64,000 bases of DNA from the NCBI RefSeq assembly GCF_028532725.1, contig NZ_JAQKGU010000010.1, forward strand, positions 96,328 through 160,327, read 5' to 3'. The stretch is from Desulfovibrio sp. Fe33. Its GTDB lineage: Bacteria; Desulfobacterota; Desulfovibrionia; Desulfovibrionales; Desulfovibrionaceae. The position numbers were made by a program, and so were the translations under genes. Below, one piece after another: positions 32,031 through 35,339 of the stretch (positions are counted from its first letter, which is position 1; each line of letters starts with the position of its first letter). The notes beneath the pieces are model-generated. The model was not told where the DNA came from. It did not search any database and saw only the letters and a program-made list of their open reading frames with translations.

Positions 32031-33183
32031 GCCGCAACCCGTGGCCCGGCCCTTCTGGACGCCGGGCGTGCTGGTCATGCTGGCCCTGATGATCGGGGCG
32101 GGCCTGACCCTGGCGGTCCGCTACACCTACGGGCTGGCCGCCGTGACGAACCTGAACAACCACTATCCGTGGGGCATCTGGATCGGACTGGACGTGGCCT
32201 CGGGCGTGGCCCTGGCCGCGGGCGGGTTCACCACCGCCTTTCTGGGGCATATCCTGGGCCGCCACTACTACGAGGCCGTGACCCGGCCCGCGCTGCTGAC
32301 CGCCGCGCTGGGCTACACCTTCGTGGCCCTGGCCGTGTTCTTCGATATCGGCCGCTCCTGGGCCATCTGGAAGCCGGTTTTCTTCCAGAATCACAACTCG
32401 GCCCTGTTCGAGGTGGCCATGTGCGTCATGGTCTACGTCTCCGTTCTGTGGATCGAGTTCATTCCTGTGCTGGCCGAACGGCTGGGGGACCGGATAAGGC
32501 TTCTGGCCTTGCTGAACCGGATGCTGGACAAGACCATGTGGGTCTTCATCATCCTCGGGGTGGTGTTGTCCTGTATGCACCAGTCGAGCCTCGGCACCCT
32601 GCTGGTCATCGCGCCCACCAAGGTGTCGCCGCTGTGGTACACCCCGTATCTGCCGCTGCTCTTCCTGACCTCGGCCTTCGCCGTGGGGTATCCCATGGTC
32701 ATCGTGGAGACGACCATCGCCACCTCCTCGCTCAAGCTGGAGTCCGAGATGAACGTGCTCACCCCGCTGTCCAGGATCACCATCCTGCTGCTGGGCGTGT
32801 ACATGTTCCTGAAGATCGGCGACCTGATCGCGCGGGGGGCGTATACGACCCTGCTGGACGGTTCGGCCCAGAGCAACGCCTTCCTGGTGGAAGTGGGGCT
32901 GGGCGTGGTCCTGCCGTGGTTCATGCTGCTCTCCCGTGCGGTGCGCAGCTCCCGCAGGCTGCTGTTCATCGCGGCGCTGCTCATCGTGTCGGGCGTCATG
33001 CTCAATCGGTTCAACGTGTTCGTGGTCTCCTTCAAGGCCCCGTACGCGACCTACCCGTACTATCCGGCCATCGGCGAGATTCTCGTCACCGTCGGGGCCG
33101 TGGCCACGATCTTCTTCCTCTACCGCCTGATCGTGACCTGGTTCCCGGTGCTTTCCGCCCAACGACAGGAGGTGTCGCAATGA
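32020..33183 (+). CDS. NrfD/HybB-type polytopic membrane subunit
   Basis: 387 residues with about ten hydrophobic helices. The opening PFWTPGVLVMLALMIGAGLT, the NNHYPWGIWIGLDVASGVAL segment and the helix LSCMHQSSLGTLLVIAPTKV are typical of HybB-like members of the PsrC/NrfD family. This family oxidises or reduces menaquinone near the periplasmic face. No haem-binding cytochrome b pattern is seen. The gene starts within the ferredoxin gene and its stop overlaps the ATG of the cytochrome gene (ATGA), so the three products are made together and likely form one complex. Confidence 0.92.
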   Translation: MTHKPQPVARPFWTPGVLVMLALMIGAGLTLAVRYTYGLAAVTNLNNHYPWGIWIGLDVASGVALAAGGFTTAFLGHILGRHYYEAVTRPALLTAALGYTFVALAVFFDIGRSWAIWKPVFFQNHNSALFEVAMCVMVYVSVLWIEFIPVLAERLGDRIRLLALLNRMLDKTMWVFIILGVVLSCMHQSSLGTLLVIAPTKVSPLWYTPYLPLLFLTSAFAVGYPMVIVETTIATSSLKLESEMNVLTPLSRITILLLGVYMFLKIGDLIARGAYTTLLDGSAQSNAFLVEVGLGVVLPWFMLLSRAVRSSRRLLFIAALLIVSGVMLNRFNVFVVSFKAPYATYPYYPAIGEILVTVGAVATIFFLYRLIVTWFPVLSAQRQEVSQ

Positions 33184-35339
33184 TGAGGAAGATACTCGGA
33201 TGGCTGACGTTCGCCTTCGCGGCGGCGATTCTGGCCGGGGCCGTCCCTTCCGTGGCCGCCACGGCTCCGGGCGCGTCCGCCGAGCCTCCGGCCAAGTCCC
33301 GGAAGGATCAGACGCCGAGGCCGGAAGGCTGGTCGCCCGTGGACCAGGTGAAGGCCGAGGAAGAGGCCCGCAAGCCGTATCCGTATGTGGAAAAGGTGCT
33401 CATGGAGGACCTGCCCCTGCGGCAGCAGCGCTTGCGCGAAATGGGCATCGGCCCCAAGGACATCAAGCGCAGCTACATGCTGCTGGACAGCCCGCTGGTG
33501 GAGACCTTCGGCCGCAAGTATGAACCCGTGCGGTTCATGCACGCCAAGCACGCGGCCGCTCTCGGCGGCGATTGCGCGTCCTGCCATCACTACCGGCCCG
33601 CGGATCCCGAAGCGTCGGAAACCGTGGCCTGCCGCTCCTGCCATCAGGACGCGTTCTCGGAGAAGAATCCCGAGCGCATCGGCCTCAAGGCGGCCTACCA
33701 CATGCAGTGCATGAACTGCCATGAGGAGATGAAGCAGGGCCCGGTGAGCTGCGAAGGGTGCCATTCCAAGCGGAGCGTGGACCACAAGGAACTGGTCAGG
33801 CTCCCGGAGAATCCCACGCCCCAACAGGTGACCGGGGAATGCCTGCGCTGCCACGAGCAGGCGGGCGAGGACATGCTCGACACGGCCCACTGGCTGTGGC
33901 GCGGCCCGTCCCCCTACACGGTGGAACACAGACGGAGCGTCATGTCCGGCAAGGGGACCACGACGCTCAACAACTTCTGAATATCCCCCATCAGCAACGA
34001 GGCTCGTTGCACATCATGTCATGCGGGATACGGCTGGAAGGATGGGTCTTTCGACTTCTCCAACAAGAACAACATCGACTGCCTGGTCTGTCACGACACC
34101 ACGGGCAGCTACAAGAAGGCGCCGCCGGCGGCGGGTATGCCCGACCCCAAGGTGGACATGCTCTACGTGGCGCAGCGCGTCGGCCCCACCAGCAGGAAGA
34201 CCTGCGGGGCCTGCCACTTCAGCGGCGGCGGGGGCGATGCGGTCAAGCACGCGGACATGTCCGCAGAGCTGTACTGGCCGGACCGCAACTGCGACGTACA
34301 CATGGGCGGGTACGACTTCTCCTGCGTGGAGTGTCACAAGACCCGCAACCACAAGATATCGGGCCGGTCCACGTCGGCTCCGGTGGCCGAGGGGTCCCGC
34401 GCCTGCGAGGACTGCCACACCACCAAGCCCCATTACGGCGAGACCCTGCTCGACCATCACCTGAACAAGCATTGCGAAACCGTGGCCTGCAACACCTGCC
34501 ATTCGCCCATCTACTCCAAGTGCGCCCCCACCAAGACGTGGTGGGACTGGTCCACCGCCGGAGACAAGAAGCGCGAGATCGGAAAGGACAAGTACGGCAA
34601 GCCCGACTACGACTGGAAGAAGGGCGACTTCCGCTGGGGCGAATCCGTGAAGCCCGAATACGCCTGGTACAACGGGTTCATGAAGCGGCTGCTGCTCGGC
34701 GACGCCATCAACCCCGAGGCCAAGGGGTTCAAGTCCGGCGATCAATTGACCGACGCACAGAAGGCCGGTCTGGTGAAGACGAACATCACCGAGCCGATAG
34801 GGTCCATCAAGGACCCGCATTCGCGGATCACGCCGTTCAAGATCATGTCCGGCATCCAGCCCGCCGACGCCAAGCATCGCTATCTGCTCCTCCCGCATCT
34901 GTATCCGTATGACAAGGAGGACAAGACCGCATATTGGAAGGGCGCGGACTGGCAGGCCGCCTTCAAGGAAGGCATGGAAAAGGCCAAGCTGCCGTACAGC
35001 GGCGAGTACATCTGGGTGGCCACGGAAATGTACTGGCGCATAGAGCACGAAGTCATGCCCAAGGAGCACGCGCTCTCCTGCGTCCAGTGCCATGACAGCC
35101 TCAAGGGTGAGAAGACCTGCGACCGCTGCCATCAGGACGCCCGCGACGTGAAGTTCCGGGAACTGACGGAAAAGGGCGCGGACTTCGAGCTGCTGCGGAT
35201 GATGGGCCGCGATGTGGGCGACCTGATAGGCAAGACCGACTACGTCGACTTCAGGAAGCTCGGCTACAAGGGCGACCCGATCCTCTACGGCGGCCGGTTC
35301 AGCCAGTTGCCGCTCGGACAGGGGCCCGCCCCGAAGTAA
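33180..35339 (+). CDS. Selenocysteine-containing 13-haem cytochrome c, octahaem tetrathionate reductase (OTR) family
   Basis: 719 residues if the in-frame TGA at 33978-33980 is read as selenocysteine (residue 267). A signal peptide (about 1-26) is followed by a four-CXXCH cytochrome c3-like part (Cys132, 151, 177, 191). A nine-CXXCH part follows with the OTR-family blocks: CLRCH at 221 with DMLDTAHWLW, TTLNNF-Sec-ISPISNEARCTSCH, GYGWKDGSFDFSN, CLVCHDTTGSYKK, CGACHFSGGGGDAVKH, and later CVECH, CEDCH, CNTCH, CVQCH (634) and CDRCH (647). As I recall the family, a Cys occupies the Sec position (NNFC-I). The frame is unbroken before and after the TGA. Lys356 in the VKH motif is the probable lysine ligand of the active-site haem and lies 89 residues after Sec267. 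An annotation pipeline would wrongly split it into 33180-33980 and 34137-35339. It is the last gene of the operon and probably receives electrons from the NrfD/ferredoxin pair. Its substrate may be a sulfur or nitrogen oxyanion; this is inference. Confidence 0.88.
33978..34010 (+). promoter_or_regulatory. In-frame UGA (Sec codon) with bacterial SECIS-like hairpin
   Basis: The UGA at 33978-33980 is followed 13 bases later by GCAACGA-GGC-TCGTTGC (33994-34010), a perfect 7-bp stem with a 3-base loop. The loop starts 21 bases from the UGA and its first two bases are G. This agrees with the known bacterial SECIS rules (loop about 16-37 bases after UGA, a G among the first loop bases), and the placement is close to that of the fdhF element. 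The hairpin lies inside coding sequence (SNEARC). Confidence 0.82.

What the first reader, a model, noticed from the sequence alone, without database searches (positions are those of the whole stretch)
33180..35339. Selenocysteine-containing 13-haem cytochrome of the octahaem tetrathionate reductase family
Seen: a single in-frame TGA (33978-33980) splits one otherwise continuous cytochrome frame. The codons on both sides encode conserved OTR-family blocks (TTLNNF, then ISPISNEARCTSCHAGYGW), and the overlapping start with the NrfD gene shows a functional operon. Thirteen CXXCH motifs remain in frame. A perfect hairpin with a GG-starting loop lies at the correct distance for a SECIS. Known from memory: the family carries a Cys at the TGA position, and in Shewanella OTR I recall Cys64 close to an active-site haem with Lys153 as ligand. 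Those are 89 residues apart, exactly the distance between Sec267 and Lys356 here. Inference: a catalytic selenocysteine next to an unusual Lys-ligated haem, a combination I do not know to be described. Annotation pipelines will report two broken genes.
Basis: partly seen in the sequence, partly recalled or inferred. Interest (0 to 1): 0.95.

Follow-up and report, generated by a model that had tools for sequence, protein, structure and literature searches.

The report
Selenium-bearing thirteen-haem respiratory cytochrome
A bacterial gene for a 13-haem cytochrome is crossed by a stop codon that is predicted to be read as the selenium amino acid selenocysteine, next to the haem that is likely catalytic; 88 of 235 related genes examined have the same stop codon there and nearly all the others a cysteine codon, so this is likely an uncharacterised selenium-and-haem respiratory enzyme.

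Summary
Frame 33180-35339 is open except for one TGA (33978-33980); read through, it gives 719 residues with 13 CXXCH motifs. Residues 211-640 belong to the octahaem tetrathionate reductase family (TIGR04315). The TGA aligns with Cys64 of Shewanella OTR (1SP3), and Lys356 with its Lys153. The genome has selA, selB, selD and tRNA-Sec. In 236 distinct homologous loci the codon is TGA in 89, TGC/TGT in 145, other in 2.

Each of the 89 TGA copies has a hairpin behind it, of two designs: type I GCAACGA-GKC-TCGTTGC (62 copies, window included) and type II YTGGTGC-AGKT-GYACCAR (27). Each changes the residue eight places on (usually Pro to Ala/Ser, or to Cys). The tree needs 13 Sec/Cys/SECIS changes, 9 forced. 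The 13-haem form lies in a conserved operon with HybA-like and HybB/NrfD-like genes.

Selenocysteine in TIGR04315 is already one row in a 2026 review table, not discussed in the passages seen; so this is a new variant of a known kind. Not found in my searches: the two SECIS designs, the 13-haem fusion with its operon, clade-specific Cys371/Cys448. Substrate and direction are inferred. Against universality: 10 of 117 database proteins have Leu/Thr/Ala there.

The parts
33180..35339 (+). 13-haem OTR-family cytochrome gene, 719 residues with TGA read as Sec
   Evidence: TIGR04315 487.7 bits over residues 211-640
33167..33174 (+). Shine-Dalgarno-like AGGAGGTG
   Evidence: seen
33180..33260 (+). 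signal-peptide-like N-terminus (residues 1-27), judged by eye
33573..33764 (+). N-terminal tetrahaem c3/HmcA-like domain (CXXCH at residues 132, 151, 177, 191)
   Evidence: PF14522, PF02085, PF14537; C-terminal part of HmcA
33810..35099 (+). OTR domain, residues 211-640, eight CXXCH
   Evidence: 1sp3_A E 1.9e-115
33978..33980 (+). in-frame TGA, predicted Sec267, aligned with Cys64 of 1SP3
33994..34010 (+). predicted SECIS hairpin (type I): 7-bp stem, GGC triloop at nt 24-26 from U of UGA
34008..34022 (+). CTSCH277-281, second OTR haem motif (the catalytic haem in OTR)
   Evidence: role from PMC11024163 (passage)
34245..34247 (+). Lys356, aligned with haem-ligating Lys153 of OTR; invariant in 159 of 159 loci
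   Evidence: 118 Lys and 2 Arg of 120 database proteins
34290..34292 (+). Cys371, in 54 of 54 rows of the 13-haem clade and 0 of 105 other rows of the first two sets
   Evidence: also 8 of 8 phylum-set rows L188-L195, 0 of 5 in L196-L200
34521..34523 (+). Cys448, in 53 of 54 rows of the 13-haem clade and 0 of 105 other rows of the first two sets
31122..32030 (+). Fe-S protein with a Tat-like start (by eye), HybA/HmcB-like
   Evidence: HmcB 356.4 bits (cut-off 420), HybA 265.3 (cut-off 263), 4Fe-4S domains
32020..33183 (+). NrfD-family membrane subunit, HybB/HmcC-like
   Evidence: PF03916 74 bits; PRK10881 332.1 bits (cut-off 450); HmcC 274.5 (cut-off 550)
30331..31026 (-). divergent Crp/Fnr-family regulator
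35366..35396 (+). inverted repeat with T run after the stop codon, terminator-like
   Evidence: seen by eye, not scanned

Best explanation
The frame at 33180-35339 codes for a 13-haem OTR-family cytochrome and is crossed by a single UGA that is predicted to be read as selenocysteine 267 by SelB and tRNA-Sec through the hairpin just downstream; this Sec would lie beside the haem that is catalytic in octahaem tetrathionate reductase. Shown: the frame, the haem motifs, the UGA/Cys exchange among homologues, two SECIS-like hairpin designs tied to the UGA, the Sec genes, and the conserved three-gene operon. Inferred: menaquinol is oxidised at the NrfD/HybB-like subunit, electrons pass through the HybA-like Fe-S protein to the fused tetrahaem domain (an internal donor) and along the OTR haem chain to haem 2, whose sixth ligand would be Lys356. 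There the selenolate of Sec267 would attack a small oxidised substrate, most likely an S-S bond (polythionate, thiosulfate or polysulfide), otherwise an N-O compound, and the Se adduct would be reduced by haem 2. In the 13-haem clade Cys371/Cys448, and in type II copies Cys275, are candidate resolving thiols.
For: UGA aligned with Cys64 of 1SP3 and Lys356 with Lys153. TGA 89, TGC/TGT 145, other 2 of 236 distinct loci. Type I hairpin in 62 and type II in 27 of 89 TGA copies; among 149 non-TGA rows (two of them held twice), 1 fits type I and 0 fit type II. One type II copy (L209) keeps the stem through a change on both sides, C-G to T-A. selA, selB, selC, selD in the genome. selB in 55 of 57 genomes with a TGA copy (28 of 28; 27 of 29). 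Same triloop register in the genome's own selD UGA site, a triloop three nt later in two fdhA genes. Purifying selection on both sides. HybB-like gene upstream in 50 of 53 and HybA-like in 48 of 53 loci with five motifs before residue 267; the misses have little or no DNA left upstream. [quoted passage not shown] A tetrahaem cytochrome interacts with OTR in Shewanella, weakly: PMC4484225 (passages).
Against: No selenium measured. OTR is itself called an enzyme of cryptic function (PMC11024163), so the substrate is a guess. 10 of 117 database proteins and 2 of 79 phylum loci have no Cys/Sec at 267, and 2 of 120 database proteins have Arg for Lys356. selB was not found in 2 of 57 genomes with a TGA copy (G538, 81% complete; G227, 96% complete). 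selB is common in relatives anyway (130 of 148 genomes, with or without OTR; 67 of 71 OTR-bearing genomes), so co-occurrence is weak evidence. The type II hairpin follows largely from its peptide (median 30% of synonymous draws form it). The type I hairpin is nearly invariant, so it offers no covariation. The AlphaFold model is unusable (mean pLDDT 53), so Sec267-Lys356-Cys371-Cys448 geometry is not shown. Direction of electron flow is not tested.
Confidence: 0.72

Rival explanations
1. Sec is inserted, but the cytochrome is an electron-entry subunit rather than a reductase: like Hmc, Qrc or Ohc it passes electrons from periplasmic hydrogenases/formate dehydrogenases inward, and Sec267 only tunes or gates haem 2.
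For: HmcA-like tetrahaem domain and HmcB/HmcC-like partners; octahaem relatives in Ohc-like operons with a b-type cytochrome; Ohc is described as passing electrons from OhcA to OhcB and OhcC (PMC4641369, passage); MmcA, an OTR relative, is an electron conduit without the catalytic haem (PMC11024163, passages).
Against: The Lys ligand position is invariant (159 of 159 loci; 78 of 78 aligned phylum loci), and a selenolate next to it looks costly for a mere conduit (inference).
Confidence: 0.3
2. The UGA is mainly a stop: a 266-residue five-haem protein is the normal product and full-length protein is made only when selenium is plentiful, as a switch.
For: The part before the UGA holds a complete tetrahaem domain plus one haem motif.
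Against: dN/dS after the UGA is about as low as before it, and Cys copies are uninterrupted in the same clade.
Confidence: 0.08
3. Sequencing error, frameshifted pseudogene or recoding of UGA to another residue.
For: Two of 89 TGA rows (L133, L134) have a stop 44 and 62 codons after the TGA.
Against: Same codon in 89 of 236 distinct loci with linked hairpins; selA, selB, selC, selD present; Cys in nearly all other relatives.
Confidence: 0.02
4. The Ala275/Cys275 changes are selected for function in Sec enzymes, not forced by the SECIS.
For: Cys275 in 27 of 27 type II copies and 0 of 149 non-TGA rows would give a U-x7-C redox pair.
Against: In type I the same position is Ala/Ser (62 of 62), no redox partner; both residues are what the respective hairpin needs; 13 non-TGA rows have Ala and 5 Ser anyway.
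Confidence: 0.2

Closest known systems
Octahaem tetrathionate reductase of Shewanella oneidensis (OTR, SO4144, PDB 1SP3; TIGR04315)
   Same: OTR domain aligned over residues 202-639 at E 1.9e-115; eight haem motifs; Lys position; Cys64 position
   Different: Sec predicted instead of Cys; N-terminal tetrahaem domain and one more C-terminal CXXCH; own quinone-type module; clade-specific Cys371/Cys448
Selenoprotein row 'tetrathionate reductase family octaheme c-type cytochrome' (WP_331457571.1, PMC13188914 Table 1)
   Same: Same NCBI family, one Sec
   Different: Listed as GenBank-annotated only, motif '-', no SECIS, operon, haem number or function in the passages seen; the record itself was not seen
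Ohc complex (OhcB-OhcA-OhcC) of Desulfovibrio vulgaris
   Same: Octahaem cytochrome with Fe-S partner; several octahaem relatives here sit in Ohc-like operons
   Different: Membrane partner of Ohc is haem-b (PF01292 in the relative scanned); the window's is NrfD/HybB-like; 13 haem motifs instead of 8
Hmc, Qrc and Hyd-2 HybAB modules
   Same: Fe-S protein plus NrfD-family membrane subunit
   Different: HmcB, HmcC and HybB-type cut-offs not reached (HybA just reached); the cytochrome subunit is an OTR
Other predicted selenocytochromes: five-haem GSU2937/GSU2936 protein, ExtKL
   Same: In-frame TGA or Sec in a multihaem cytochrome
   Different: Different families: the former has five CXXCH and a C-terminal part without characterised relatives (PMC1914089, passages); ExtKL is NF040886 (PMC13188914, passage)

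Membership tests
Bacterial selenoprotein | in-frame UGA with Cys or UGA at the same place in homologues | tested here: met
   89 TGA, 145 TGC/TGT, 2 other of 236 distinct loci
Bacterial selenoprotein | SECIS hairpin directly after the UGA with G in the loop | tested here: met
   no Rfam family reached its gathering score in the window
Bacterial selenoprotein | selA, selB, selC, selD in the genome | tested here: met
Bacterial selenoprotein | selenium in the purified protein | not testable with these tools
   needs 75Se or mass spectrometry
OTR family (TIGR04315) | score above the curated cut-off | tested here: met
   487.7 vs 375 bits
OTR family (TIGR04315) | eight haem motifs in the OTR domain | tested here: met
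   residues 221-634 hold eight CXXCH
OTR family (TIGR04315) | Lys ligand to haem 2 | tested here: inconclusive
   the Lys is there: Lys356 aligns with Lys153 and is invariant in 159 of 159 loci; ligation itself not testable
OTR family (TIGR04315) | reduces tetrathionate, nitrite or hydroxylamine | not testable with these tools
   no assay
Ohc complex | haem-b membrane subunit OhcC | tested here: not met
   the gene beside it is an NrfD-family subunit (PF03916); the octahaem relative scanned has PF01292
Hmc complex | HmcB and HmcC above cut-off, HmcA hexadecahaem | tested here: not met
   356.4 vs 420, 274.5 vs 550; HmcA 65.6 vs 400
Hyd-2 (HybAB) module | HybA and HybB above cut-off with hydrogenase subunits | tested here: not met
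   HybA 265.3 vs 263 met, PRK10881 (cytochrome b subunit) 332.1 vs 450 not met; hydrogenase genes were not searched for

The most novel reading that the evidence does not exclude
The haem-2 pocket of OTR-type cytochromes is a site where selenium has been recruited at least twice, with two unrelated SECIS designs written into the same conserved peptide (SNE-x-RC and SNW-x-RC). The result is a class of selenium-haem respiratory reductases in anaerobic Desulfobacterota in which a selenolate and a Lys-ligated haem act together on the substrate, with lineage-specific resolving thiols (Cys371/Cys448 or Cys275).
Probability: 0.4. Interest if true: 0.85.

Novelty: new variant of a known kind. Interest (0 to 1): 0.62.

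Why it matters
OTR has a solved structure and known in vitro activities but a cryptic physiological role. Natural Sec/Cys pairs at one defined residue, down to pairs 82% identical within one genus, give a ready-made test of what that residue does. If the selenolate works with a Lys-ligated haem, it would be chemistry for which my searches found no described example, in a respiratory complex spread over many sulfate-reducer-like lineages. It also warns that gene callers cut these proteins in two: 3 of the 120 best-listed database hits are C-terminal pieces that start 29 residues after the UGA site.

Tried and rejected
Structure: AlphaFold2 on a 26-sequence alignment gave mean pLDDT 53, so no fold search was run and no distances are claimed. 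Rfam over the window at gathering thresholds: no hit. A genome-wide pattern search for the window's hairpin with up to 3 mismatches found only this gene, so the hairpin sequence is not shared with the other selenoprotein genes; the triloop form is. Synonymous-recoding control: strong for type I (median 0.35%, maximum 3.7%, window 0.1%), not informative for type II (median 30%, maximum 42%). Independent-pair test on the 158-row tree: the CGT codon follows Sec in 5-7 of 7 pairs (median p 0.016), the Ala/Ser residue in 4-6 of 7 (median p 0.06), never the other way. The idea that residue 267 is always Cys/Sec was rejected. Cys371/Cys448 do not mark every protein with five haem motifs ahead of residue 267: L196-L200 lack both. 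Trees are 'quick' LG+G4 trees with several long branches; the counts of changes are minima and cannot tell gain from loss. Rows left out: one search listed its matches only in part, and its short matches to the c3-like domain, which do not cover residue 267, were not used; two contig-end fragments of G099 were fetched late (L283, L284, both TGC, identical over the 48 nt printed) and are not in the counts; one search kept the best 80 of 103. Literature for a described selenocysteine OTR: (search listings; only some of the listed papers were opened), which gave only the table row in PMC13188914. PMC7096707 and PMC8840924 were looked at in passages and added nothing on the Cys; PMC4215793 and PMC5701242 held none of my terms.
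Full report
What is there. Reading TGA as a residue, window 33180-35339 (+) is a single frame of 719 residues. It starts 4 nt inside the upstream NrfD-like gene and has a strong ribosome-binding-site-like sequence. It holds 13 CXXCH motifs: four in an N-terminal c3/HmcA-like domain, eight in an OTR domain (TIGR04315, 487.7 bits, cut-off 375) and one after it. 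The only interruption is TGA 33978-33980. In the alignment to the solved Shewanella OTR (1sp3_A, E 1.9e-115) the TGA falls on Cys64 and Lys356 on Lys153; residue numbers were counted from that alignment. The second OTR haem motif, CTSCH277, begins ten residues after the TGA. [quoted passage not shown]

Is the TGA real and selected? Three sets of homologous loci were read. 82 loci from 148 genomes of the genus, family and order: TGC 43, TGA 31, TGT 8. 80 named loci from genome contigs, the best 80 of 103: TGA 30, TGC 28, TGT 22. 79 loci from a spread of 395 genomes of the phylum, of which 73 had a match: TGC 35, TGA 30, TGT 12, ACT 1, GCC 1. One search ran on 238 rows, with L190 and L208 still in and the two others counted under 'Cys'. 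The loci were found by similarity to a Sec-bearing query, so the proportion is not a census. dN/dS between the window and seven relatives is 0.10-0.26 after the TGA and 0.12-0.24 before it. Of the 89 TGA rows, two have a stop soon after the TGA (L133 after 44 and L134 after 62 codons).

The SECIS. In the window the stem is nt 17-23 with 27-33 counted from the U of UGA, triloop GGC. The same register occurs in the genome's own selD UGA site (loop GGA); two fdhA UGA sites have an 8-bp stem and loop GGC or GGG three nt later. All 59 distinct TGA rows of the first two sets carry this design and none of their 100 Cys rows does. Under synonymous recoding it forms in a median 0.35% of draws (maximum 3.7%, window 0.1%). 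The phylum set brought a surprise: 27 of its 30 TGA copies have a different hairpin, mostly CTGGTGC-AGGT-GCACCAG (stem nt 21-27 with 32-38; 22 of 27 exactly so), and 3 have the window's design. In one type II copy, L209, the outer pair is T-A instead of C-G, a change on both sides that keeps the stem. One genome, G279, has one copy of each design (L226 type I, L209 type II). Residue +8 goes with the design: Ala in 58 and Ser in 4 of 62 type I rows, Cys in 27 of 27 type II rows, Pro in 109 of 149 non-TGA rows. Residue +7 also differs: Glu in all 62 type I rows and Trp in all 27 type II rows, both common in Cys copies. So the conserved peptide S-N-[E/W]-x-R-C can be rewritten as a SECIS in two ways at the price of one residue (inference). 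For type II the hairpin follows largely from the peptide (median 30% of synonymous draws), so there the association with Cys275 is the main evidence, not the hairpin alone.

Sec machinery. selA, selB, selD and tRNA-Sec (anticodon TCA) are present in the genome. selB was found in 28 of 28 TGA-bearing genomes of the first set and 27 of 29 of the phylum set (missing in G538 and G227). The baseline is high (130 of 148 relatives with or without OTR; 67 of 71 OTR-bearing genomes), so this is only consistent. The second set was not searched for selB.

History. A 158-row tree of OTR domains with columns 260-280 masked needs 10 Sec/Cys changes, 7 forced by well-supported branches. With 237 rows and three states it needs 13, 9 forced. 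Both states occur among close relatives of the same genus code: L022, L027-L029 and L032 have TGA (75-94% identical to the window), L023-L026, L030 and L031 have TGC (76-82% identical). L031 keeps Ala at +8, which fits a recent loss of Sec (inference). Against a universal rule, 10 of the 117 listed database proteins that cover residue 267, all about 50-54% identical, have Leu, Thr or Ala there (only the best 120 of 3906 hits were listed), as do L200 (Thr) and L262 (Ala).

Two forms. Of 53 loci of the first two sets with five haem motifs before residue 267, 50 have a HybB-like and 48 a HybA-like gene upstream; the five with a miss (L042, L043, L107, L117, L123) have little or no DNA left there. 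The 13-haem clade of the tree carries Cys371 in 54 of 54 and Cys448 in 53 of 54 rows, against 0 of 105 other rows; in the phylum set L188-L195 (13 motifs) have both, while L196-L200 (12-13 motifs, longer frames) have neither. Octahaem relatives, Sec or Cys, have instead a cytochrome b gene downstream where it could be seen (a cluster found in 29 of the first 159 loci, many of which are too short to show it; the member scanned is PF01292; 13 of 16 phylum-set TGA loci examined). Several have a divergent sigma-54 regulator and an Fe-S gene upstream (L069, L074, L076, L077), which matches the Ohc complex of Desulfovibrio vulgaris as described in PMC4641369 (passage). That the octahaem Sec forms are OhcA homologues is therefore likely but was not tested against the D. 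vulgaris sequence.

How it likely works. Menaquinol oxidation at the NrfD/HybB-like subunit, the HybA-like Fe-S relay, the fused tetrahaem domain as internal donor (in Shewanella a separate tetrahaem protein interacts weakly with OTR, PMC4484225, passages), then the OTR haems to haem 2. Sec267 as a nucleophile next to haem 2 would suit S-S or N-O substrates. All of this is inference. The main rival is an electron-entry role like Hmc or Ohc.

Known or new. PMC13188914 (passages only) lists 'Tetrathionate reductase family octaheme c-type cytochrome, TIGR04315, 1 Sec, WP_331457571.1' as GenBank annotated. Other predicted selenocytochromes exist (PMC1914089, passages; ExtKL in the same review). 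PMC2702500 (passages and section 23) counts at least 31 selenoproteins in Desulfobacterium autotrophicum; its full table was not seen. My searches (listings, some papers opened) found no paper on the Sec form's SECIS, operon or function. Subscription journals are mostly not held, so absence is not proof.

Noticed in passing
L202, L203, L205, L209, L213, L216-L225, L227-L230, L232-L239 (residue 267 equivalents): A second SECIS design (mostly CTGGTGC-AGGT-GCACCAG) in 27 OTR genes of the phylum set, always with Cys at +8.
   Followed up: yes
P0110, P0112-P0118, P0120, P0121; L200, L262: Relatives with Leu, Thr or Ala instead of Cys/Sec at residue 267; some have also changed the loop around Lys356.
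   Followed up: partly
L031 (G004), codons after the TGC: A Cys copy that keeps the Ala typical of Sec copies, possibly a recent Sec-to-Cys change.
   Followed up: partly
L196-L200: OTR proteins in frames of about 1000 residues with 12-13 haem motifs that lack Cys371 and Cys448: a further architecture.
   Followed up: no
P0079, P0101, P0104: Database proteins that start at a Met just before query residue 297: gene calls cut by the UGA.
   Followed up: yes
window 35420-42655: Sigma-54 regulator and ORFs on the other strand that look like an acetoin/2-oxoacid dehydrogenase cluster; only the regulator was scanned.
   Followed up: no
L018 (G000 C1:315169-316098): selD of the same genome has its own in-frame TGA with a hairpin in the same register.
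   Followed up: partly
G000 C10:77235-80246 and C3:303454-306459 (L184, L185): Two formate dehydrogenase alpha genes with one in-frame TGA each; a weaker match (L186) has one too.
   Followed up: partly
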